Part shown: piece by piece, positions 1-50,028 of the stretch | How positions within the stretch are numbered: position 1 is the first letter of the stretch | Layout: every line of letters starts with the position of its first letter | Source of the DNA: Grifola frondosa | Lineage: Eukaryota; Basidiomycota; Agaricomycetes; Polyporales; Grifolaceae | DNA length: 64,000 nt | Direction: 5' to 3' | Assembly: GCA_001683735.1 (NCBI GenBank) | Contig: LUGG01000003.1 | Coordinates: 2,170,001 to 2,234,000 of the forward strand | Translations under genes and position numbers: made by a program | Notes under the pieces: generated by a model | What the model saw: only the letters and a program-made list of their open reading frames with translations | The model's database searches: none | Told to the model about the DNA's origin: nothing

Positions 1-3000
1 TCCATTCTGTCAGCAGGGTCGGATGTAAACGCAAGGCTCCCGAGGCGCTCAAAGACTACCTTCCAAGCTCTCTGACCGGCCTTCCTAGCTTCTTTGCCCG
101 GCCTCCACCCAAGCCCAAGCACGTGGCTAAAGTGCCACAGTCACCGAGTCCTGTACGATCCCCTACACCTGAGCCACCTCCGTTACCCAAGCACATCCAT
201 ACCCCACCGAACTCCTTCGGAGTGTTTCGTCGCTACGTCGTTCAACCTGTCTCTGATCCAGAAGACACGCTCACTATCGAGCACTTCTCTGACTCACCCA
301 ACCACCTTCCCACCTCCATCGATACACAGCAGTTGAGCCCACTGTGCGGCTTTGGAATTTCACTTTCCAATGCCGCGCAGAAGGCCAAGGACCACTTCTT
401 TGCACCCTTCCTCAACGCAAGCACGTTCAAACTAATGCGTTGGTATTACTCCACCTCTCCCTACAAGTCAGCATCCGACCTCGACCGCCTTGTCACAGAT
501 GTTCTCTGCGCTGACGACTTCAATCCCAACGACCTTGAGAGCTTCCGCGCTGCCCGAGAGATGAAGCGCTTGGACGAATTCACGGACTCAAGCGCCGCCT
601 TTTCTGCAGCGGACGGATGGCGCGAGGAGTCTGTCAAGATCAAACTCCCTCACAGTGGCACACGCTGGGATTCCGAGGACGACGCACCAGAATTCGAGGT
701 CAAGGGCATTTTTGTATGGCCTCTAATTGAAGTTATCAAAGCAGCCTTCCAGGACCCGAGCGCATGCGGCTTCCACTGGCTTCCCTTCAAGTATCTCTGG
801 CAATCTGATCCTGTGTCCGGACCAACTCCTCCCCCGGAACGTGTCTATACTGACACCTACAATTCGGACGCCATGCTCGAGGCCGACGCTGAGATCCGAG
901 CACAACCCCGGAATCCAGAAGACTCGCCCGACATCGAATACTCGGTCGCTCCCATCCTCGTATGGTCCGACTCCACCCACCTAGCGAGTTTCAGCACCGC
1001 CTCTCTGTGGCCCATTTACGCTTTTTTCGGGAACCTTTCCAAGTATACTCGCGCAAAGCCGCGTTCATTTGCAGCGCAGCATCTCGCATACATACCCAAG
1101 GTGCGTTCTCACTTTTTCATCCGCATAAAATTCTCTGTCCATTCTAACACTCCATTTTAGCTCCCAGGGTCGTTCCAACAACATTATCAATCCATCTTTC
1201 AATCGCCTGCGACCGTAGCCGTCCTGCGCTTTGTGAACCGCGAACTCATGCATAAAATCTGGCTCCTCCTGCTTTCGCCAGATTTTATGCACGCGTACGT
1301 GCACGGCATCTTGATCAAGTGCGGCGATGGTGTCATGAGGCGGATATTTCCGCGCTTCTTCACATATTCTGCGGATTATCCAGAGAAGTAAGAGTGCTTC
1401 CATTTACACTGTTAACCGGACTAATTATTTTGTTTAGAATCTTGCTCGCATGCATCAGGTATCTTGCAAGATGCCCATGTCCGGACTGCCATACGAAGAA
1501 GGTCTACGTGCCAGGTTTGGGCACTACTGTAGATCGGCAGCACCGAGTGAAGCGTCGAGAAGACACACAGGTCGTTCAAGACAAAATTGCCCTCACGCGC
1601 AAATGGATCTTCGAGGATGGGGCACCTGTGGAAGGTGCTTGGATCAACCGTAAGCTCAAGGAAACTTTCCTAACAACTACTCGAGTGCGCGTCTTCTCCA
1701 ATTTCATGTCTCCGGGCTAATACCATTGTTTTTACAGAGCACGTTCTCGATACGGTTCGCTCAATTCGGCTTCAATCATTATGAACTCTTCGTGCTGGAC
1801 CTCATGCACGAATTTGAACTCGGAGTATTCAAGGGAATCTTGACGCACACCATTCGTTTACTGATCGCTGCGGGGAACGACAACATTCAAGAATTTGACG
1901 AGCGGTGCGCTTCAATCTATTTGCTTTGTTTAAGTCCTTACTGATTTCTGGCGTGTTGCAGATTTGCGCTTGTGCCCACATTTGGCCGTGATACTATACG
2001 CCGCTTTGGCGTGAATGTCTCGGGCTTGAAGAAACTCGCTGCCCGTGACTTCGAGGACATTCTCCAGGTGCGTATTCACATATTTATATTCTATTCTAAC
2101 TAATCTATGTTCATCAGTGCATAATTCCGATTGTTGAGGGCCTATTGCCCGGCAAGCATAATCGGATCGCGCTGGATATGTTCTTCGAGCTTACACTGTG
2201 GCATGCACACGCTAAACTGCGTCTGCATACCGAGTCTACCCTCCATCAATTCGAGCAGGCCACGAAGACGATGGGCGCAAGTGTTCGGGAGTTCAAGAAA
2301 GTCGTCTGCGCAGCGTATGTCATGAAGGAGCTCCCGAAGGAGACAGCTGCGCGGCAGAGACGATCTGCAGCGCTCAGTGCCAAGACCAAGTCCGGGAAGG
2401 GCAAGGATCCTCCCAAGTCCTCCCAGGTTGCTGCGATGACAACGTCCACCAAGCAGAAGGCTCCGTCCAACGACTGCGAAGACACTGAGGATGCGACATC
2501 CGCGGAGCCCAAGACGCCACTCAAGGACTCCGAAGATGCGAACAAGTTGACACCCGCGGGGCGCAAGGCTCCTGCATCTAGCGGATGCACAAAGGAATTG
2601 AACCTGAATACGTACAAGTGGCACCAGCTGGGCGATTATGTCCACGCCATTCGCCACTTCAGGACTACTGATAATTACACTACACAAATTGTGAGTGACT
2701 CGTGTGCATTTATTTTATTTCACTTACCTGCAACTACAGGGAGAGCTCGAACATCGACGGGTTAAACGCTTTTATGTACGTACCACAAAAACGCACAATT
2801 CCAACTTCAAATCGCAAAGCATCAACGACGGGAAGCCTACCTCCACAAGTTGCAGGATGGTAGCAATACAACTCACGTAACTCAGCGGGCTAAACGCAAA
2901 TGCGCTGAACACAAGAAGACTCGCGCGAAGAAGCGTTGTCGGCCACGTCTCCATTTCAAGGACACGGAGATGCTGCCAAAAGCATCCCCCCGGTTACATC

Positions 3001-4086
3001 ACCACATCGCCGACGACCAGAGTAAATATGTGCATATTTCTGGGTTTGCATCGGACCATCAGGAGGATCCTGCGTGCAAGGTATGTTAAAGTGCTATCAG
3101 TATTTAATTTCATTTAACCTGTAGCTAGGATTTCATACGGAAACTGGAGCAGCACATTCTGGCACGAATGACAGGGCGACTTTACGAAGATCCTCCCCCC
3201 CATTTTACAGACCAAGAACGGGACACTCTGGTGTTGGACCGAGGACGCATGTATCTCCACAAGGTCCTGCGGATCAACTACACGACGTACGACATGCGCC
3301 GCGAGCAAGACACGATCAACCCGTCCACACATGCCGACGTCATGATGCTCACGCCGCATGACAGCCATCACCCATTCCTCTACGCACGCGTGTTTAGCGT
3401 GTTCCACGTGAACGCCTATCGAATTGGACCAGGATTCCCGAAACACCCAGAGGCGGAGCGATTCGACGTGATATGGGCACGTGGTCTGGAGCTGGATGAG
3501 TCTGTCCCAGGAGGGTTTGATACACGAAGACTGCATCATGTCAAGTTCATCGACAGCAGTTCTGAAGACGCATTCTTGTTTCTCGACCCGCAACAAATTC
3601 TGAGGGCCGCTCACCTCATCCCCGCCTTTCACTTCGGAAATACCGATGAACTTCTCCCCGGACCGAGTGTAGCACGTCAAGGAGACGAGGAGGACAATGA
3701 TTGGAAGTATTTTTATGTTGGGATGTGAGTATTCTTAAATTTATTCCCTAATCTACTCTAACAAGATATTCTACTACAGGTTTTGCGACCGCGACATGTT
3801 CATGCGCTTCAATGGTGGGGGCATTGGGCACCGATCCGGCAGCAAACATTCCACTGCCGCAATGCCAAGGATTCAAGTGAACGCGCCGGAAGAAGCCTTA
3901 GACGAGGATGAGGAAGAGGTGCAGGAGCTGCAGGCGGACTTAGATTCCGAGAGCGGCCATGGGTCAGAAGGTGATTCTGATGCAGAGGGCAATTCGGATG
4001 AAGAGCAGGGCTCTGGATCCGAGGACGGTGAGAACGTTGACGGGGATGGAGACAACGACGATTTAGAAGGCTTCGGAGCGCTGTAG
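1..4086 (+). CDS. Plavaka-family DNA transposase, 5' end outside window
   Basis: Transposase of the Plavaka family (CACTA/EnSpm-like cut-and-paste elements frequent in Agaricomycetes). The frame is already open at base 3, so the N-terminus lies outside the window. I read exons 1-1100, 1161-1387, 1438-1649, 1738-1904, 1962-2067, 2118-2690, 2740-2775, 2820-3080, 3129-3724 and 3780-4086, all with GT..AG introns; the 44-nt intron 2776-2819 is the least certain. Recognisable family blocks in order are SLWPIYAFFGNLSKYTRA, HAYVHGILIKCGDG, FFTYSADYPEK, LFVLDLMHEFELG, VPTFGRDTIRRF, GELEHRRVKRFY, HKVLRINYTTYDMRR and FCDRDMFMRF, followed by an acidic Asp/Glu tail. No stop codon interrupts these exons, so this copy could be intact and possibly active. 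The family call rests on remembered homologs; whether it is active is inference. Confidence 0.88.
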
Positions 4087-4331
4087 TTCGCACAGTGTAA
4101 TTGTAGTACCGGATAAATATTTTTATTGTATACTGAACAGAAGTACATGCTATGGTATTGTACTGCATACTATGTATTTCATAATCTACGTGATGACACG
4201 CACCTGTAGGACTGGCGCGATCTGCTGGGGCTTTGTATGCATTTGGCAAGACGCCCGATGTCTGGTAGCCTCGTGGCCGCCTCTGCCAGATAGCGCACGT
4301 CTGGCCAGGTGCTGCAAAGACCACCGGAGTT
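4087..4331. other. 3' non-coding end of the Plavaka element
   Basis: Stretch between the transposase stop codon and the terminal repeat. It holds a plausible polyadenylation region (AT-rich around 4110-4180) and a few TCTGG motifs (for example near 4260 and 4300). No gene seen. Confidence 0.4.
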
Positions 4332-4348
4332 TCAAGTTTTTGCTGATG
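4332..4348. repeat. Right terminal inverted repeat of the Plavaka element (putative)
   Basis: TCAAGTTTTTGCTGATG. Its reverse complement, CATCAGCAAAAACTTGA, differs from the terminal repeats at 7139-7154 and 11757-11772 by one extra A and one C-to-T change. The SET coding sequence starts again directly after it (4349). I infer that this is the 3' terminus of the Plavaka element; the other end lies outside the window, so pairing cannot be checked here. Confidence 0.6.
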
Positions 4349-5283
4349 CCTTGGTTGACATCGATGTTGCTTGGCTAGAGGCCATTTACTCATACAACAG
4401 CTTCAGTCCTGGTTTTGCTCACCTCCTTGGCAACGAGGTTTCAGACACTGATCACTGCATGGACAGTCCCACAGGCTTGTACCTCCTCCCATCACTTTTC
4501 AACCACTCATGCGATGGGAATGCGGCGTGGACTTGCATCGGAGAAGTGATGGTGATCAGGGCGACGGAGCACATTTCAGCGGGCACAGAGATTACCCTAC
4601 CATATGCCGGAGGATATTCCTACGTGGAACGTCACTCCACGTTGAAGCATTTCATGCTCTCAGGCTGCGACTGCTGGTTGTGCAAAGAGTGCAAAGAGGA
4701 TTTAAAGGATGGGAAAGCAGCAATCCAGCGCAGGCACGAATTGTATACGAAGCTGCTCAAGGGGCCAAAATATTCTCTCGCGGAGTTGCGGACACTGGAG
4801 CAGCAGATCGCGAAAACGTACTCGTCGTCGAGGGGCCCAGTTAGACCGATAACATCCAAGGTTCAGCATGCTATCGCGAGCAAGCTGATCGCTCTTGATA
4901 GCCCGAGCACGCTCAGGGAAGGTATCAAAGAAGAGCTGAAGGCGCTGAAAGGCTTCGGATACAAGTTACATGCGTCGTCTTCGGCCTCTGACTTACCCAT
5001 CGCCATGGACAGGTTGCCATCTATGACCGACTTCTACATGGCTGCCTGCATAATGATCTGTTTGAGTCACCTCTTCCTACGTCTTGATGATGACAGAAAT
5101 GCTGCCGGCTGGTTGAAAGCTGCAGTTTGGGGTGAGTCAGGTGCATTCTTGTCAAGGTCGAGATCTCACTATCTCCTAGTGACGAATGCTGCAATTGGTG
5201 GTGGAAAGGAGCTTTTCATGCTGATTATGGGCCTACGTATTGAGCACGCTGGTCTGCAGGAGTTCGCGCTGCACGTACTATAA
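4349..5283 (+). pseudogene. SET-domain gene, copy 1 (3' part only)
   Basis: C-terminal part of a SET-domain protein, presumably a lysine methyltransferase of the TPR+SET/SMYD-like type. Visible are the SET core NHSC (near 4503), the GTEITLPYAGGYS block and a cysteine-rich post-SET (CDCWLC), then the family's C-terminal helical region. Exons are 4349-5131 and 5180-5283; the 48-nt intron happens to be open in frame. It is strongly similar to copy 2 (12070-12986), including about 100 bp of 3' flank, so the two arose by tandem duplication. The N-terminal TPR part and the first half of SET are absent: upstream sits the terminal repeat and the Plavaka gene, which appears to have inserted into the coding exon. 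Probably non-functional unless the missing half lies beyond the window and the element is precisely excised. Confidence 0.82.
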
Positions 5284-5791
5284 ACTATTTTGTAGACATC
5301 TTCATATATATCCGCGCGCATCTTAGCACTACTATAACATCGATTGCAAGTTGTAGAGCGCATCACGGGTGTACAACATATACAAAGCGTTCAACAAAGT
5401 CTTGGTGGCAACAAGCAATAGTTCCGTCTAATCCAAGTCTCTGATACTGAAACTCTACCCACCGAGCTAATGCATGCTTACAAGCGCGACAGGATTTGCA
5501 GGGCTTCTACATTGCACTGACAGCGTCTGTCAACATGTGTTTCATATACTACTTGGTCGGTGAGACATTTCGCTCCCTAAAAGTCGATGAGATCATTGAC
5601 TTCAAAGTCTAAACTAAGAAGTTCCGCATAGGCATCCACACATGCAATCACCTTTCTTAGGCTGTATGAACTTGCCTTGCTCGTGTAGCAAGCAGAGGGA
5701 GGGAAGTGGCATCCCTCATTTCAACACTTCTTTTTTTCCGCAGTAGCGAGACTCGCTTAGCTCACAAGCGATACGACTCCAGATACACGTA
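5284..5791. other. Spacer and promoter region between the SET copies
   Basis: The first ~110 bases are the 3' flank shared with copy 2 (compare 12987-13080). The rest should hold the copy 2 promoter; a T-rich tract at 5728-5738 lies 50-60 bases before the start codon. No gene seen. Confidence 0.5.
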
Positions 5792-8700
5792 ATGGTCCTC
5801 CGCATCGATATGTCCCCCGACGAACTTGACCAGTACTTCGACAGTTATCAGGCGTGGTCTGAAGAAGGCCTGAAAATCGCCCCTGGACCAGCCCCTCTGA
5901 TGAGTCGCGCGATCCTTGTGTCGGAACTGCTCGCTTTGCGTGAGGAACCTGAGACGGCGTTGGCCGGGGAGAGCAAAGTCTATCAGACATATACAGGACT
6001 CGCAAACCACTCCAGTTCGACGCCTCTGCAGAACCTAGAGCGAAGTATGTCAACCTACTTGATTAATTATGGCGTTTTAATGCCGTTTGCGTCAGTCACG
6101 TTCTCTAATATGTCCATTCGGAAAACTCATGTTGTAAGTAGTTTTAGTAACCCGTAGAAGTATTTGCCATACCTTCTGACTCCATTACTAGGGGCATTTT
6201 CTCTTATGCCGTACTATCGCACCTTGCGGTTCGTCACCGTGCTGCATAAACTGTTGTAAATCCTCAAACTAATACTCATCTGACAGCGCGCTTTGTAGCA
6301 ATATCCACTGTCGTGGAAGACACCGATGGATTAGTGCAAAATTTGTCGATGTACAATTTTCCTACGACAATCGGCTGTTCACTCGATCATCTCGACAAGT
6401 TGTTCCCAATAGGCACGGTCATTGCCATTCGAGAGCCTACTCTTAAGGAACCGTTGCAAGGATCCCATCCTCTGGTGCGAGTTGATTCCCCTACAGATAT
6501 TGTCTTCGTCGATCCCAATCATCCCATTTTACATGGGATTACCTGGAGAACTGGACTGCAGAACGTGTCTCCTGCAATGCCAGACACGGTCGAGGGTTGG
6601 AAGGATCGTGGGGATGCGTATTTCAGGGCCTCTGAATGGCTTCCTGCCGCCATTGCATATTCTCGTGGCCTTAGGTTGAACTCAGAAGCCATTGTTCTTC
6701 GCCTGAATTGTTCCGAAGCTTTCCTACGCCTTCGCTATTATTCTGGCGCCCTTTATGATGCGCGCTATGTCCTTTCGTTGGCGGATATACCGGAAGGTTT
6801 CCTCCACAAAGCATTGTTTCGAGAGGCAAAGGCTGAATACGCACGGGGGAATTTTGACGCAGCTCTTGTTAGCTTCTTGCGCTGTCGTGAGATTCGTCCG
6901 GAGGAACAGTCCGTCATCGATTGGATCAGTCGCACCCGCTCACGCCAAGTAGAGAGCACTGGCCAATACGACTGGCCGTCTTTGGTCCGCATGGCTAGGG
7001 AAGATGTCCACTTGGATGTTGCTGACTACCAAGGTAACATAAAGGTACAGTCAATGCCTCATCGCGGTGGTGGTAGAGGTATCGTAGCTACAAAGGATGT
7101 CAAACTGGGAGAATTGCTTGTACATATTTCAACGGCTGCATCAGCAAAACTCGATTCGGTCTGAGTTCGTCTGATTTCATCTGATTTCGTCTGAATTTGT
7201 CTGGAATGTCTTAATTAAGACCCAAAAGATCTCACAGCAATATAAGACACTTAAGATGGCCCAGAACAAGGTACTGTATTACTACATATCTACAGTTCAG
7301 ACAGGTCCAGAGGCATCACAGAAGGCCCAGAGCCACCAGCTAATCAGATGAGAATTTTGGCACTCATTCCGTAAGAATATTAAGACAATCCAGACTGTCC
7401 AAACCAATAAGAACATCTTGATATTCTTCTTGTCACTCTGGGTTCTCTGATTCGAGACTATTCAGAACTCACAGACTGCGAAGAAATTCCACATGACACA
7501 GACGGTGTGCCAGAGGCGGACATACATATGTTCAAAAGGGTCCTCGGGAAGTAGAGACAGAGACTGGTCGGGGTATGCGTCCTGCTGGGGTGTGCGCGCC
7601 GGCACCGGTGATCGTGGCCAAGCCTATGCCCGCCTGTAGGAGCCACTGTGTGCAATCTGATCGCGAGGCCATTGTGCCCAGTGGGAGGCACCGACGCACG
7701 CGTACATAGCCTACAGGAGTCGCATTTGTCCTCAGAACTTGCGCAGCTGCATCTCACCCGCAGCGCGGCCCTCTCCAGTGCCGGCGAGTTGCTCTTGCTC
7801 CTGCGCCGCTGTCGGCATCAAAGTCCGTGGGGCTCACGCCGCGGCTCAGCATCGCCGCGTTGATGACGGTGAAGCGCGGGTGGCAGCCCTAGGACTGCGC
7901 GGCTTCTTGCAGGTGCACGTAGGCTGCTGCGGGCGAGATAGCGGGAGAGATAGTGGCGAGATCTGGGCGGGATGCACGAAGCGCGGGGTATTGGCGGGCG
8001 TGGGCGGGTACTGCAGTGTCCGCTAAATCATACACAGGGTCTCAACGCCATGGCCTCTCTCAGACTCGTCACCACGAACGCATCAGCGACAGTCAGCAGC
8101 ACGAGGTATTGGCTGAATGTAAGGTCCTGCATATGTAAGAATACCAGAGATTGGTATGTAAGAGTCGAAAGCGCGAGTTGAGGTGCGACACGACGTCCGC
8201 GACGCCGCCCTGGATCTCGTTCTCCTCCGTCATCTGTAGTGCAACTTGGATCAGAACAACCTGATGCAACCGCGAAGGTGGTCAGCATGACATAACTGCA
8301 TAGCATATAGTGCGCACTTTGCCTTGATATTCGGGGTATTTGTCGAGGAACGCCTTGAATGCTTGAATCTTGTCGCCCTCGGCATACATGCTCACGATCA
8401 CATCCGCGAAGCGCTGGTTCACCGCGACGTACTTCTTGAACGACGCGCTCTCGTAGAATGCCTTCGTCTTCGGTGCGTCCGGCAAGCACGGCCACAGCAC
8501 CTGGTGGCGATCTGAGCAGGGCAGGCGAGCGAGGCTTCCGGTGATTCACGGACTCTGTCAACATCTTCATATCTGGCAATGAGGCACGACACATGATATA
8601 GATCGAGACAAGCGACTTGCGCTCGTTGAGTGTGGAGGCGACATTTTGCATGTGCGCTCCGCGTGGAACAGCCGGGGATTGAGTCGTTTGGCGAGTTCAG

Positions 8701-11700
8701 CGTGACATCGGACCGTGGTTGGACTCATTGGGACGAGGACCGCACTCTAACGTGAACGCGAATGCAAACGCAAACGCGAACATGGATTGGACTAGAACAT
8801 ATGCACCCCGTGTGTACGGGCGTCGCATGGATGTGTGGTGCCAGGTCTCAGGTCGGCAGACAGGTGACGATAGGGAACGAGGAGAACGACAGAGATGTCG
8901 TGCACGCGTGGGGGTTTTGATCGTGCGGTCAGACGCGTCTAGGATGGGGTATGTGCAGGACGCGCATCGATCGACGGTCTGCATGGAGGAGTTGAAAATG
9001 TGTGGATGCGGGTCGCACGGAATGCTTGCCCGAATGGCAGCTTTCAAGCTGTGTCAGTGGGGGAAACGAAGAAGCCGGCCAATGAGGTGTCCGGGTTGCG
9101 TTCGGCGAGTTCAGCATGACGTCGAACAACTCTACTCGTCGGGTTGAGGACTGCGCTCATCGAATGTGGACGGGGATGCGGGCTGGACTAGAACGAGCAC
9201 ACGGGATGTGCACGGCCGCAGGGTGAATGGCCGGTGCCGGGTCTTAGGAAGGCAGACAGGTGATGAACGGGAACGACGAGAACGACAGAGACGGTGCGGA
9301 CGGGGCTGCTCGTCTACAGCGCAGGACACGGGGGAGGTAAGATGCGTCTGCCTGGATATGCGCAAGGCGCGATATAAAATGGTGTGATGGCGGATGATAT
9401 CAGAGCTAATACTTACGAGGGGTGCAGTGCGCAGGGCGGGCACGTACGATGGGTGCGCGCGGGGTGTGAGCGCGGATGAGTCGGGCGGGCATGGGTGCAG
9501 GCACGAGCACAGGCACAGGCGTGCACTGCAGTGCAGTGGGGGCAGACATGGAGCGTGGACGAGAGATGGGTGTAAGGAGCGCAGTGCGGGGTGTGGGCAA
9601 CGGGCGCAGGCATGTACGCTCGTAGGGATATGCAGGGGTGACAGAGCAGGTAAGTGAAACCAACCGACGGAGACCAAGAGCAAGTAGAGAGACACGCCTG
9701 AGGGCCAAGGTATGACAGCGAGTCATGGAGGTGGAAGTGGACTCGAACGTGAGGCGGCAGCCACCGAACGCCAGAACTGAGAAGTTCGAAGCGCGCAAGT
9801 TCAACTTCGTTTCGTACTCTCACGCTCTCACTCACCTTAGGCTGCATCGCACACCTCGTCCTCTCATCCACTCTCCCCACTTCTCATCACTTATCACTAG
9901 GTTGTTCCAGCGGCCTTAGCGGTACCCATTGCTCAACTTGAGGATGCTCTGCACGATGCACTCGCGCTCATGGACACTGCATACTCCAACACTGCGCGGT
10001 GCAAGCTCTTCCCGCACCGTGTGGCAGTCACCAGCTGCTCTGCCGTGGAGCTCCTCGGGAACCTGCGCAACACACAGATAGTGGAGGTCGTGCCGCAGAA
10101 GGGCAGGGAGCGGGCGAAGGTGCTGTTTGCGTTCAGCGGGCAGGGCGGGTAGTACATCGGGATGGGCGTGGAGCTGCATGAGCGCGTGCCGTTTGTGAGT
10201 GTGTTTTCCTCTTTTTGACTAGCCTTGGCATGGTCACCGTCGGGGTGCTGAAACCGGATGATGCACTATGGCTGGTTGCTGTGCGCGGCCCCGAATTCAC
10301 GACTAGGTCACAGCATGCATCGAGATCGGTCCGCACCCCACGACATTCCCGATGCTGCGCTGCCTCCAGGGATGCGCGGGCACACCCCTGCTCCTCCCCT
10401 CGCTACGTATGGATACCTCCGACTTCGCCGTGCTTTGTGCTGCCCTAGCTGGACTGTACGCGCTCCCCGTTGCCAATGATATCGCGTGGCACAAGGTCTT
10501 CAATGCCCTCGCGTCTATCTCGTGGACCTCCCGCTGTATCCTTTCGCCGGCATGCGCTATTGGGTGACCTTCGAGGAGAACGCCCGCTGCTGCCGCGCTC
10601 GCTTCGACACTCCCCAAGCCCCGCTTTTCCCTGCTTGACTCCTGTGTTGGCTTGCCTTCTGCGGAGGGCGTCGACGGTGTGTTCGAGACGCCTTTCAGCC
10701 TCCTTGCGGACCTAGTCGAAGGCCATAAGGTATCTGGCTTCGTGTTGTGCCCAGCCTCGGTTTACCACGAACTCGCAGCGGCTGGCGCACCGCTCATGCT
10801 TGAGCACCTCGCGCACATGCCAGCGGATGTTGTGCTCGACCTTGCCGGGATCACCTACTCGAACTCCCTCATCTACTCTCCAGATGTCGCAAGCACGGTA
10901 CGCACGGACATCACACTCAACGCATCTGGCGAGAAGTATGCTTACACATTTACCATCAGCTCGTACACTACAGGCGGCAAACGCCAACCGTACTGCACAG
11001 GCGTCTTCGACGTCAGAGGCAGCTCGGAGCGTGCGTCGAAGCTTACGCTTGCGAGCACGATGGTCCAGCGGCGCCGGCAGGCCGTGCTCAACTCCTGCGC
11101 TGCGGAAATATTCTACACGTGCACAGCGTACGACCTCGTCTTCTCGCGTATCGTCGCCTACTCACCGATCTTCCACAGCATGAAGTCTATTGCTATCTAG
11201 GCAAATGGCATCGATGCGTACGCAGTTGTGCAGCTGCCTGCGGCCGCTTCTAAGGGTGCGTACGTCATTCACCCGATCTTCATGGACACGCTGCTCTATG
11301 TTGCAGGCTCCGTTATCAGCTGCAATGCCGGTGCGAACGAGGCATTCATCTGCGCGGGACTACGACGTACTTAGGCAGCCGCTTGTATCACGCCGTCGGA
11401 TGCAAACATACCGTGGCTAACAGGCGGCGCACGTACGTGTTGGAGCACTTTGTGCTGTCGGTGCTGATTGCGGAGGTGCTGTCAGACATTATGTACAAGT
11501 AGCTAAATTATAATCTAGGCAATCTGTAAGCTCTGAGCAGTCTGTAAATAGATCTTGAGGCTCTATTCCATCTGAAATCTGAGCTGTGTCTGGATATTCT
11601 TATTGTTCTGAAGCTCTGAAGCTTCTGCTGAAGACCATCAAGAGGCTTCAGAGCTTTCAGACAACAAGGGCTTATGAAACCTCTGTTACGTCTGGAATGG

Positions 11701-12986
11701 TCTGATGGTTCAGACACTCAGACGAAACAGAGTCATTCAGAGGAAATCAGAGTGTTTCGAGTTTTGCTGATGTGTTCAGTGGTTGAGGCTAATTCACTCC
11801 CGCAGCTTGTGTCCAAACCATTCATTGCTGTATTCAGTAGTGATGTCCCGAAGGGAGAAGTATTCATAACGCATGATTTGCTCTCGAACAGCATCGGCAC
11901 CAGCACAACGCATATATCCTTGTTACGGACCATAGAGAAGATATATGGCAATCCTGAGACCCATGATCTCGTGTATCATTTGTATGCCGGTCCCCACTTC
12001 CCTTGCCTATCCGACTCATATCCCCCGATGACTTCATCGGAACCCTCCTCTGTGGATCCTCTGGTCCCGTTGGTCGACATCGATGTTGCTAGGCTAGAGG
12101 CAATTTACACGCACAACAGCTTCTGTCCTGCTTTTGCCCACCTCCTCCACAACGAGTCTTCAGACATTGATTCCTGCGAGGACAGGCCCTCAGCCCTATA
12201 CCTCCTCCCATCCCTTTTCAACCATTCGTGCGCTGGGAATGCGCTGTGGACCTGCATCGGAGACGTGATGGTGATTAGGGCCTGCGAACGCATCCCAGCG
12301 GGCACAGAGATTACGATACCATACACCGGAGGATATTCCTACGTGGAACGTCACTCCAAGTTGAAGCATTTCATGCTCTCAGGTTGTGACTGCTGGTTGT
12401 GCAAGGAGGATTTACAGGATGGGAGAGCAGCGATCCAGCGCAGGCACGAACTGTTAACGAACCTTGAGGAGTCAAACTATTCTCTCGCGCAGTTGCGGAA
12501 GTTGGAGCAGCAGGTCGCGAAAACGTACTCGTCGTCGAGGGGCACAGTTAGACCGATAACATCCAAGGTTCAGGATGCGATCGCGAGCAAGCTGATCGCT
12601 CTTGCTATGCCGAGCACGTTCAGGGAGGCTGCTGAAGAGGAGTTGAAGTCGCTGCAAGGGGTGGGATATCAGTTACGTGCGCCGTCTTCGGCCTCCAACT
12701 TACCCATCGCAACGGACAAATTGCCATCCACGGTCAGCTTCGACATGGCTGCCAGCGCAATGATCTGTTTGTGTCTCATCTTCCGACGTCTCGATGATGA
12801 CAGAAATGCTGCCAGCTGGTTGAGAGCTGCAGTTTGGGGTGAGTCGGAGGCACATTCTTGTTAGAGATTAAGTTTCACCATCTTCTAGTGACGAATGCTG
12901 CAGTTGGTGGTGGAAAGGAGCTTTTCATGCTGATTATGCATATTGAGGACATGGGTCTGCAGGAGTTCGCGCTGCGTGTCCTGTGA
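5792..12986 (+). CDS. TPR and SET domain protein, copy 2, with a transposon in intron 4
   Basis: Probable protein lysine methyltransferase with N-terminal TPR-like helices. Exons 5792-6044, 6096-6133, 6192-6228, 6287-7119, 11806-12838 and 12889-12986 sum to 2292 nt, an exact multiple of three without internal stops, giving 763 aa. The TPR segment (WKDRGDAYFRASEW onward) is at roughly residues 212-320; the SET domain starts at RGGGRGIVATKDVKLGELL (about 370-387), continues with LVSKPFIAVF after the splice, has NHSC near residue 525 and a post-SET CDCWLC near 580. Intron 4 (7120-11805, phase 0) contains the element 7139-11772; without it the intron would be 19+33 = 52 nt, the normal size here, with a branch-like GCTAATTC and acceptor CCCGCAG retained. 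Whether a 4.7-kb intron is spliced is unknown; failure would truncate the protein inside SET, 14 residues after exon 4. Confidence 0.83.
7139..7154 (+). repeat. Left terminal inverted repeat
   Basis: CATCAGCAAAACTCGA, 19 bases after the splice donor GTACAT of the host intron. The exact complement is at 11757-11772. Confidence 0.88.
7155..7470. repeat. Left subterminal TCTGA/TCAGA motif array
   Basis: About ten short motifs (GGTCTGAG, CGTCTGATT, CATCTGATT, CGTCTGAAT, TTCAGACAG, CTCTGATT and others) in 300 bases, far denser than elsewhere in the window. Subterminal arrays of this kind are typical transposase-binding regions of CACTA and hAT elements. No gene. Confidence 0.6.
7471..8029. other. 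Element interior without recognisable gene
   Basis: GC-rich sequence, with short open frames on both strands but nothing I can assign. It lies directly downstream of the trehalose-phosphate synthase fragment on the minus strand and may be decayed continuation of it. Confidence 0.35.
8030..8515 (-). pseudogene. Trehalose-phosphate synthase (GT20) fragment
   Basis: Internal fragment of a glycosyltransferase family 20 trehalose-6-phosphate synthase. Read on the minus strand, 8500-8290 gives PDAPKTKAFYESASFKKY, VAVNQRFADVIVSMY and KIQAFKAFLDKYPEYQGKV; after a gap and frame change 8155-8035 gives LTYQSLVFLHMQDLTFSQY and the family block LLTVADAFVVTSLREAMALR. No start, no stop and no N- or C-terminal domains are present, and the pieces are in different frames, so this is dead DNA. 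It sits inside the transposon, opposite in orientation to the host gene, and is most simply explained as captured host sequence. Confidence 0.75.
8691..9320 (+). repeat. Two imperfect direct repeats of ~210 bp, spaced ~414 bp
   Basis: The segment beginning GGCGAGTTCAGCGTGAC at about 8690 recurs as GGCGAGTTCAGCATGAC at about 9104. Both copies continue with a GGACTAGAAC block, a CACGGG/TACGGG block and GGCAGACAGGTGA followed by a GAACGA-rich run (8858-8895 and 9253-9290). The copies differ by many substitutions. No coding function recognised. Confidence 0.6.
9330..9900. other. Element interior, GC-rich, no recognisable gene
   Basis: Purine-biased GC-rich sequence with overlapping open frames on both strands that lack family similarity; I treat these as chance frames. 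Confidence 0.35.
9905..11505 (+). pseudogene. Non-reducing polyketide synthase fragment (MAT and PT regions)
   Basis: Broken internal part of an iterative type I, non-reducing polyketide synthase. 9905-10195 carries the linker before the malonyl acyltransferase and its start, KVLFAFSGQGG then a TAG stop, then YIGMGVELHERVPF. The core of the acyltransferase, with its active serine, is missing; 10310-10570 resumes with IEIGPHPTTFPMLR and, after a frame change, LVDLPLYPFAGMRYW. 10600-11200 is the product-template domain, with the N-terminal hot-dog block EGHKVSGFVLCPASVYHE that carries the catalytic His, and 11200-11310 the second half with HPIFMDTLLYVAG carrying the Asp. Several stops and frame changes and no KS or ACP: not functional. 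It lies inside the transposon. Confidence 0.82.
11515..11756. repeat. Right subterminal TCTGA/TCAGA motif array
   Basis: About fifteen short motifs (GCAGTCTGTAA, CATCTGAAATCTGAG, TTCAGACACTCAGACG, ATTCAGAGG and others) mirror the array at the left end. Confidence 0.6.
11757..11772 (-). repeat. Right terminal inverted repeat
   Basis: TCGAGTTTTGCTGATG, the exact complement of 7139-7154. The remaining 33 bases of the host intron, including a branch-like GCTAATTC and the acceptor CCCGCAG, follow. Confidence 0.88.
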
Positions 12987-48825: not shown

Positions 48826-50028
48826 ATGTCCAATCAGTCCCAAGCTACAGTATTTTTTGCTGATGACCAAGATTACTCCTCGGTGACATACGAACCAGAG
48901 AATCTCTGGCAACATTCGTCAGTATCCGGCGCAGGTGTCTTCGATGGTACGCTGTCCTCCGGCACTACGAATGCTACAGCGACGTTCACCTTTACTGGTA
49001 TGTAATCTATCCTTTAAGCGATATAATTTTGATATGACGAAGCTACTACAGGAAGCGTTGTCCGTGTGCTAGGTGTCATTGTGACCGCGGCCAACGAATC
49101 ATGGCCACTCCCAGCTATCGGATTTCAATTAGACGGCACGGCACCCTCATTATACCAACCACCCGCATACACTGTCACTCCAAATGGACAACTCCAGCTT
49201 CAGGAGCAGGTTGCAGTGTACACGTCTCCGCAATTGGCAGATGGGCAACATATTTTGAAGATCGGCGTCGTGGAAGGGACGCTGGACTACCCGTTTGTCC
49301 TGGATGCGTTTGAATACGTGCCCAGCTCAAATGCAGCCGCTACAGCTTCGCAACAGGTTGCCACCACGACGATTGTAGCGTCGGGTGCCACGGGCGCTGC
49401 TGGCAATTCATCAAAATCTAGTGGTGCACCTGTCGGCGCAATCGTGGGCGGGGTCATTGGTGGAGTTGCCATTTTAGTATGCGCGGCGATCGCCGTATAT
49501 TTCCTATGCTTTCGGCGAAGGCATGGACAAACATACTTCTATGCGGCTGCAAGGGCTGGGACTTACTCGACGAAGGTTAGCTCACAGGCGTCTTCGGTCA
49601 TGAAATCCGCTGATCAGTCTCTAGAGATCAAAGCTACACCCACTCCCTACATGCTGCCAGTCAGCCCTTCCGTTGTTCCCGAATCAACTGCGGGTGCAGA
49701 ATCCTCCTATAATCCGCCTGTCACTATACCACAGCCGGTCTACGCACCAAGCCAGCTTGGTGGTGCCCCAACGAGCGACATGGGCGGAAGCTCGACGAGC
49801 GGTAGTTCACGTCAGACGCGTTCCATGTATGCAGTAAATGCGATGTCGCAACTGCAGTCGAGCCCTAATCAGCCCATGAGCAAGGCCGCTCAGGCTGGAC
49901 TGCTCTCTGTCCCTCAGCCGACAACCTATCATGCGGATTCGGGAGTACGGTTTACCGCCTCGGCGGAGCCCTCTTCTTCTGGCGTTCATGCTGTTACGGA
50001 TGTTCCACCAACATACTCCGAGAATTAA
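48826..50028 (+). CDS. Single-pass membrane protein with PPxY tail, paralog A
   Basis: Agaricomycete single-TM protein of unknown function. Exons 48826-48997 and 49052-50028 give 382 aa. A beta-rich extracellular-type domain (TVFFADDQDYSSV ... TATFTFTGSVVRVLGVIVTA) is followed by a Thr/Ser/Ala linker, GAIVGGVIGGVAIL and a hydrophobic helix (VCAAIAVYFLCF), a basic stop-transfer RRRH, and a long Ser/Pro cytoplasmic tail ending THHADSG-like YHADSGVRF and DVPPTYSEN, a PPxY motif that in other proteins binds WW-domain ubiquitin ligases. With this start there is no signal peptide; the upstream in-frame start 48667 would add a hydrophobic stretch but lies in CT-rich sequence. Intact. Confidence 0.78.

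What the first reader, a model, noticed from the sequence alone, without database searches (positions are those of the whole stretch)
7120..11805. A 4.6-kb transposon sits inside a 52-nt intron of an otherwise intact TPR+SET gene
Seen: exon 4 ends at 7119 (codon CTT) and exon 5 starts in the same phase at 11806; the six exons sum to exactly 763 amino-acid codons plus stop. Removing 7139-11772 leaves GTACAT plus 13 bases and 33 bases with GCTAATTC and CCCGCAG, a normal 52-nt intron. Inference: the element turned a tiny intron into a 4.7-kb one. Fungal introns of this size are rare, so this locus tests whether splicing still works or whether expression is cut inside the SET domain.
Basis: partly seen in the sequence, partly recalled or inferred. 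Interest (0 to 1): 0.75.

Follow-up and report, generated by a model that had tools for sequence, protein, structure and literature searches.

The report
Gene-scrap transposon inside a mushroom intron
In the maitake mushroom a mobile element carrying scraps of two unrelated genes has landed inside a tiny intron of a TPR+SET gene, stretching it about ninety-fold; the insertion is real and of a known kind, and whether the gene still makes its full protein can now be tested directly.

Summary
Window 7139-11772 is a 4,634-bp inverted-repeat transposon inside intron 4 of a TPR+SET gene of Grifola frondosa; the 763-codon model is exact. All 4 paralogues examined have an intron at this phase-0 site (50, 51, 54, 56 nt).

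By its ends (CATCA, 16-bp perfect repeat) and 2-bp duplications (8 of 10 paired copies) the element is a non-autonomous PlavakaB-type transposon. It carries internally deleted fragments of a trehalose-phosphate-synthase-like (GT20) gene and a PKS gene; likely source genes lie elsewhere in the genome. It resembles soybean Tgm-Express1, a gene-scavenging CACTA element in an intron. The neighbouring tandem paralogue is split in an exon by a 7.5-kb PlavakaB-type element: an exon/intron contrast side by side.

Function is unresolved and leans against efficient full-length expression: the stretched intron's donor (GTACAT) is the only one of 24 tabulated without G at +5; read-through meets a stop after 14 codons, where the public protein model (401 aa) ends. 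Against: downstream exons are open and GT-AG remains. No RNA was available.

The parts
5792..6044 (+). Exon 1 of the TPR+SET host gene
   Evidence: same protein in A0H81_03840
6096..6133 (+). Exon 2
6192..6228 (+). Exon 3
6287..7119 (+). Exon 4 (TPR-like region; ends GELL, phase 0)
7120..7125 (+). 5' splice site GTACAT of the stretched intron; +5 is A, unlike the other 23 donors tabulated from five paralogous genes
7120..11805 (+). Intron 4, 4,686 nt; inferred 50 nt before insertion
7137..7138 (.). Left target-site duplication TG
7139..11772 (+). Non-autonomous, gene-carrying PlavakaB-type transposon, 4,634 bp
7139..7154 (+). Left terminal inverted repeat CATCAGCAAAACTCGA; TCTGA-rich subterminal stretch follows
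7162..7164 (+). First in-frame stop (TGA) if intron 4 is not removed; end of public protein A0H81_03840
8041..8508 (-). Captured fragment of a trehalose-phosphate-synthase-like gene (Pfam Glyco_transf_20), internally deleted; closest gene-like match C5:566975-568012
9919..10197 (+). Captured PKS fragment, 83.5% to the gene at C44
10231..10287 (+). Captured PKS piece, 86% to C44
10288..11353 (+). Captured PKS fragment incl. dehydratase-like region, 87% to C44; about 500 bp of C44 are missing at 10287/10288
11757..11772 (-). Right terminal inverted repeat
11773..11774 (.). Right target-site duplication TG
11806..12838 (+). Exon 5 (SET region)
12889..12986 (+). Exon 6 with stop codon
1..4348 (.). 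Right part of a 7,539-bp PlavakaB-type element (C3:2166810-2174348) with a Plavaka-transposase piece; splits exon 5 of the neighbouring tandem paralogue
4349..4350 (.). Right target-site duplication CC of that element
4351..5145 (+). Severed downstream part of exon 5 of the neighbouring paralogue (SET region)

Best explanation
Shown: a 4,634-bp DNA transposon without recognisable transposase, PlavakaB-type by its ends, stands in intron 4 of a TPR+SET gene of Grifola frondosa with a TG duplication; the intron is 4,686 nt and was 50 nt without the element and one TG. Between its inverted repeats lie internally deleted fragments of a GT20 gene and of a PKS gene. Inferred: it was moved by a Plavaka transposase supplied in trans by related elements that share its ends. 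Inferred effect, the least certain step (about 60%): intron-definition splicing, thought to serve short fungal introns (recalled knowledge), works poorly across the stretched intron with its weakened donor, so most transcripts read into the element, meet the stop at 7162-7164 and make a TPR protein without the SET region; some full-length or chimeric mRNA may remain.
For: 2-bp duplications in 8 of 10 distinct copies that I paired and read at both ends, 3 bp in one, none in one (binomial 9e-9 for 8 of 10). The published PlavakaB features, CATCA..TGATG ends and 2 or 3 bp duplications (PMC12730594, passages), fit. Plavaka transposase matches lie inside 3 of 4 large related copies, on C5, C19 and C6. 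A Plavaka-bearing element with the same first 11 bp and a CC duplication sits in the next paralogue. Captured genes. Effect: A at +5 in 1 of 24 donors, this one; the public protein ends in the element; no public protein with exons 5-6 at 100% identity in the length ranges searched; on this gene's branch changing to silent codon changes are 13:7 in exon 5b against 22:32 in exons 1-4, Fisher p = 0.07, not significant.
Against: Exons 5-6 are fully open; GT-AG and a CTAAT branch-like motif (motif recalled) remain. With exon 5a included the contrast weakens to 16:12 (p = 0.17), and many codons were set aside as ambiguous (54 of 373, 14 of 88, 63 of 259). The insertion is young, so open exons neither prove nor disprove function. 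The public model is a prediction, not RNA evidence. The C10 copy shows no duplication; the large C26 copy shows no Plavaka match in the listed, capped rows; in the large copies a nested transposase cannot be excluded. No transposition was observed.
Confidence: 0.6

Rival explanations
1. The stretched intron is still removed efficiently and the gene makes its full 763-aa protein; the insertion is close to neutral.
For: All downstream exons open, phase kept, GT-AG and branch-like motif kept. A comparable 5.7-kb gene-carrying CACTA element in a soybean intron still gives some correct mRNA (PMC1947982, abstract and passages).
Against: Donor without +5 G, the only one of 24 tabulated; the public model stops in the element; downstream changing:silent ratio raised, though not significantly.
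Confidence: 0.28
2. Captured pieces, the sense PKS pieces above all, are spliced in as cassette exons, giving chimeric TPR-PKS transcripts as reported for Tgm-Express1. It may coexist with the other outcomes.
For: PKS pieces lie in the sense direction. Precedent: 11 of 12 distinct transcripts of the soybean allele held element-derived exons (PMC1947982, passages).
Against: The GT20 fragment is antisense; PKS pieces are interrupted by stops and deletions. No RNA evidence.
Confidence: 0.1
3. The insertion is an assembly error or is present on only one nuclear haplotype.
For: Only one assembly was available; copies with 97% identical stretches exist elsewhere.
Against: Matching TG at both junctions and exact ends; no N; the interior differs from each of the copies compared. 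Haplotype status cannot be seen here.
Confidence: 0.04
4. The cargo is functional: it makes a PKS or GT20 protein, or its sense PKS RNA regulates the source PKS gene.
For: A stretch of about 1.3 kb with the PKS fragment recurs in many copies of the family.
Against: Against C44 the PKS pieces lack about 280 and 500 bp; a GT20 exon is missing; frames are interrupted; CpG decay is seen in the 3' part.
Confidence: 0.03

Closest known systems
PlavakaB DNA transposons of Agaricomycotina (PMC12730594, abstract and passages)
   Same: 5'-CATCA..TGATG-3' ends, 2 or 3 bp target duplications, Plavaka transposase in related larger copies of the same genome
   Different: This copy has no recognised transposase and carries host-gene fragments; the extra gene reported for PlavakaB there is a TET/JBP dioxygenase.
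Tgm-Express1, CACTA element in intron 2 of soybean F3H (PMC1947982, abstract and passages)
   Same: Inverted-repeat element of the CACTA lineage, to which Plavaka is held to be related, packed with fragments of host genes and standing in an intron
   Different: Soybean: 5.7 kb, five fragments, 718-bp intron, RNA known. Here: two identified fragments, 50-nt intron, RNA unknown, fungal host, Plavaka lineage.
Pack-TYPE transposons of plants (PMC8903248, search listing and start of abstract)
   Same: Non-autonomous DNA transposons that capture coding DNA
   Different: Described there from plants; this is PlavakaB-type in a mushroom.
Histone-H3-carrying hAT element of Pseudocercospora fijiensis and relatives (PMC6710886, abstract)
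   Same: A fungal DNA transposon that captured and amplified host-gene sequence
   Different: hAT, one gene, ascomycetes with repeat-induced point mutation.
Gene-capturing Helitrons of Pleurotus ostreatus (PMC4289320, search listing and start of abstract)
   Same: Gene-fragment capture in a basidiomycete
   Different: Rolling-circle elements; lack of inverted repeats and of target duplication recalled.

Membership tests
PlavakaB | Termini 5'-CATCA..TGATG-3' | tested here: met
   Window ends; feature from PMC12730594
PlavakaB | 2 or 3 bp target-site duplication | tested here: met
   Window TG; of 10 distinct pairs 8 have 2 bp, 1 has 3 bp, 1 (C10) has none
PlavakaB | Plavaka transposase encoded (autonomous copies) | tested here: not met
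   The genome search with PF18759 lists no match in C3:2177139-2181772 (listing capped). Hence filed only as a non-autonomous PlavakaB-type relative; matches lie in 3 of 4 large copies and in the neighbouring element
PlavakaB | Transposase tree places it in PlavakaB | not tested
   No transposase tree was built
Pack-TYPE (gene-capturing non-autonomous element) | Host-gene fragments between the inverted repeats, with gene-like source copies elsewhere | tested here: met
   PKS at C44 and GT20 at C5
Pack-TYPE (gene-capturing non-autonomous element) | Moves as a unit with its cargo | tested here: met
   C5:2084867-2087613 and C4:1560062-1562801 share 97% with the window copy and have other flanks with their own duplications CA and AA; movement itself is inferred
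CACTA/EnSpm sensu stricto | CAC..GTG ends and 3-bp duplication | tested here: not met
   Ends CATCA, duplication 2 bp; feature from PMC12730594 passages
Helitron | No inverted repeats, no target duplication (recalled) | tested here: not met
   Both present

The most novel reading that the evidence does not exclude
A gene-scavenging PlavakaB-type element in a 50-nt fungal intron works as an exon-shuffling trap: the SET gene now makes a truncated TPR protein and TPR-PKS chimeric mRNAs, and the donor was weakened (GTACGT to GTACAT, a CpG-to-CpA change) by methylation-linked decay spreading from the silenced element. PlavakaB would then be the fungal counterpart of plant gene-carrying CACTA elements.
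Probability: 0.08. Interest if true: 0.75.

Novelty: new member of a known kind. Interest (0 to 1): 0.42.

Why it matters
It is a natural experiment with its controls beside it: one tandem paralogue hit in an intron, the next hit in an exon by the same transposon group, and four paralogues that keep the intron at 50-56 nt. It makes testable whether fungal splicing tolerates a ninety-fold enlargement of a tiny intron. It also shows host-gene fragments inside a PlavakaB-type element; I saw no description of that in the papers listed, of which I saw titles and starts of abstracts, passages of PMC12730594, PMC9674265, PMC6431247 and PMC1947982 and the abstract of PMC6710886, in a library that lacks most subscription journals.

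Tried and rejected
Relaxed constraint on exons 5-6 was tested by polarised codon counts and is inconclusive. The insertion is young against the gene's branch: 16 non-CpG changes in 1,481 non-CpG sites (1.1%) on the window copy's own branch in the 3' part, against 47 in 754 (6.2%) in exon 4.

Spread of CpG decay from element to host exons was looked for and not seen clearly. CpG transitions against other changes on this gene's branch: exon 4 7 (of 68 CpG sites) to 47, exon 5a 1 (of 8) to 16, exon 5b 1 (of 52) to 47; in the element's 3' part 14 (of 284) to 16, while the C5 and C4 copies have 5 to 6 and 3 to 3. In a second comparison with the C5b and C10 copies the window copy has 9 to 6 and those have 12 to 26 and 14 to 26, so the CpG excess is not the same in all copies.

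Literature on long fungal introns with transposons gave nothing specific in the listings. Artefact was rejected for lack of N and for the duplication. Starship, hAT, Mutator and Helitron readings were dropped on ends and duplication length (their features recalled). A mosaic origin was seen, 5' part closest to C10 (96%), 3' part to C5 and C4 (97.4-97.6%), among the copies compared; recombination was not followed.
Full report
WHAT WAS CHECKED. The window lies at C3:2170001-2234000 of a 39.06-Mb genome in 64 contigs. Proteins of the neighbouring genes, on a contig of the same length (2,745,113), are named Grifola frondosa, the edible maitake. The public protein A0H81_03840 (401 aa) has the same exons 1-4 and then runs 14 codons into intron 4 to the TGA at 7162-7164. 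So the public annotation gives a truncated protein. I saw no public protein with exons 5-6 at 100% identity, in searches bounded to about 420-1,335 aa and 193-614 aa and, for the first, to the 7,996 best candidates. The SET match is above Pfam's cut-off, the TPR matches slightly below theirs; the closest paralogue is publicly named a TPR protein.

THE EMPTY SITE. The gene belongs to a tandem array of four on C3, with a fifth relative on C13. All 4 relatives have an intron at the same phase-0 place after GELL: 51 nt (P1), 56 nt (P2), 50 nt (P3, the closest) and 54 nt (C13). Removing the element and one TG leaves 50 nt that align without a gap against P3's intron. Of 66 homologues the first 45 were looked at by a motif: it was found in 44, and 41 of the 45 run on into a KPF- or KAF-like stretch (P0008 no motif; P0023, P0025, P0038 read otherwise). 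Their introns were not seen.

THE ELEMENT. The outer 16 bp, CATCAGCAAAACTCGA, are a perfect inverted repeat; TCTGA or TCAGA occurs 20 and 43 times per kb in the first and last 300 bp against 2.5 in the middle. Searches with window 7130-7570 and 11500-11790 gave 18 and 23 matches, itself included. I paired ends by place and direction; ten distinct copies have both ends read: 8 have a 2-bp duplication (window TG, C26 CT, C5:971774 AT, C6:49671 AA, C19:733647 TT, C4 AA, C6:1951 TG, C5:2084 CA), one has 3 bp (CTT; C3:1433-1437 kb, with an identical-flank copy on C9 counted with it), and C10 has none. Ends without a partner were left out. 8 of 10 by chance has probability 9e-9. The terminal 16-mer with at most one mismatch occurs 151 times (67 exact, counted in the listing) against 0 for the reversed control; among the listed places 18 pairs span only 209-224 bp. 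Other paired copies span about 3.7-4.9 kb or 15-20 kb.

SUPERFAMILY. A 2025 paper gives PlavakaB families 5'-CATCA..TGATG-3' ends and 2 or 3 bp duplications (PMC12730594, passages). Both are met. Plavaka transposase (PF18759) matches fall inside the large copies on C5 (986142-986983), C19 (722337-726205) and C6 (51077-51595), not in the listed rows for the large C26 copy. On C5 and C19 they begin about 4.3 kb from the 3' end and run against the element's direction; nesting cannot be excluded, since the interiors were not fetched. The window copy has no listed transposase match, so it is filed as a non-autonomous relative.

THE CARGO. Minus strand 8282-8545 matches Glyco_transf_20 (E 8.6e-10, above the cut-off). 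The DNA matches C5:566975-567311 at 93% (window 8041-8376) and C5:567864-568012 at 87% (8371-8508), the gene stretch between being absent. Plus strand 9919-11353 matches a PKS gene at C44 in three pieces of 83.5, 86.0 and 87.1%, with about 280 and 500 bp of C44 missing between them; ketoacyl-synthase matches lie just upstream on C44. The 10231-10287 piece matches a stretch of C44 where the PKS frame is interrupted by stops, probably an intron, which suggests capture from DNA (inference). Pfam scores of the PKS pieces are below the curated cut-offs (E 9.3e-3, 9.7e-6, 7.2e-4; two of nine pieces scanned gave no family); the DNA match to C44 is the stronger evidence. The names acyltransferase and product template for parts of this PKS are recalled. 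GT20 pieces also lie in the large copies on C19, C5 and C26. Among the copies compared the window copy is a mosaic: 96% to C10 in its 5' part, 97.4-97.6% to C5 and C4 in its 3' part.

A SECOND HIT NEXT DOOR. P3 is cut in exon 5 by a 7,539-bp element (C3:2166810-2174348, reaching window 4348) with CATCAGCAAAA ends, a CC duplication and a Plavaka-transposase piece. Its public protein (P0002, 533 aa) reads into the element. Two adjacent paralogues thus carry PlavakaB-type insertions, one in an exon, one in an intron.

DOES THE GENE STILL WORK? For: everything downstream is open; GT-AG and phase remain. Against: the donor GTACAT has A at +5, while the other 23 of 24 donors tabulated have G (the table lacks the last introns of P1 and P3, and one P2 intron is as annotated and may be wrong). 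P1 and C13 have GTACGT here, P2 GTGCGT, P3 GTATGT; if the ancestor had GTACGT, the change is CpG to CpA. CpG transitions are frequent in the window copy's 3' part (14 of 284 CpG sites against 16 changes in 1,481 other sites), but a second comparison shows other copies with less CpG excess and the host exons show none clearly. On the branch to this gene, changing to silent codon changes are 22:32 in exons 1-4, 3:5 in exon 5a and 13:7 in exon 5b; exon 5b against exons 1-4 gives p = 0.07, exon 5a and 5b together (16:12) p = 0.17; P3 shows no contrast (13:26 and 7:14, p = 1); 54 of 373, 14 of 88 and 63 of 259 codons were set aside as ambiguous. dN/dS against P3 is 0.245 upstream of P3's break and 0.556 downstream, but dS also differs (0.472, 0.266), so gene conversion may be at work. 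These are hints only. I put main loss of full-length product at about 60%, mostly normal splicing at about 28%, regular inclusion of element exons at about 10%; the last may coexist with the others.

COMPARISON. The closest functional parallel is Tgm-Express1 in soybean: 5.7 kb, five gene fragments, intron 2 of F3H; 11 of 12 distinct transcripts held element-derived exons and correctly spliced mRNA was also made (PMC1947982, abstract and passages). In fungi, capture of host-gene sequence is reported for hAT and histone H3 (PMC6710886, abstract) and for Helitrons in Pleurotus (PMC4289320, listing and start of abstract). I file it as a new member of a known kind: a gene-carrying non-autonomous inverted-repeat transposon, PlavakaB-type by ends and duplication.

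Noticed in passing
C3:2166810-2174348; window 1-4348: A 7,539-bp PlavakaB-type element with a CC duplication splits exon 5 of the neighbouring tandem TPR+SET paralogue; the public protein (533 aa) reads into it.
   Followed up: partly
window 48855-48865 (-): A further CATCAGCAAAA match, like a PlavakaB terminus, lies elsewhere in the window; a partner end was not sought.
   Followed up: no
C5:971774-991234, C26:360693-376715, C19:718062-733647, C6:49671-68772: Related copies of 15-20 kb with matching ends, three with Plavaka transposase matches inside; interiors not fetched.
   Followed up: partly
C44:2271-6200 (L064 holds 3801-6200): Likely source PKS gene of the captured fragment, near one end of its contig.
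   Followed up: partly
18 places, e.g. C1:268790-268999: Pairs of the 16-bp terminus 209-224 bp apart, probably short MITE-like relatives.
   Followed up: no
C13:722761-726381 (L005): Open fifth paralogue (753 aa), publicly named 'Protein msta, isoform A', which looks like a naming error.
   Followed up: partly
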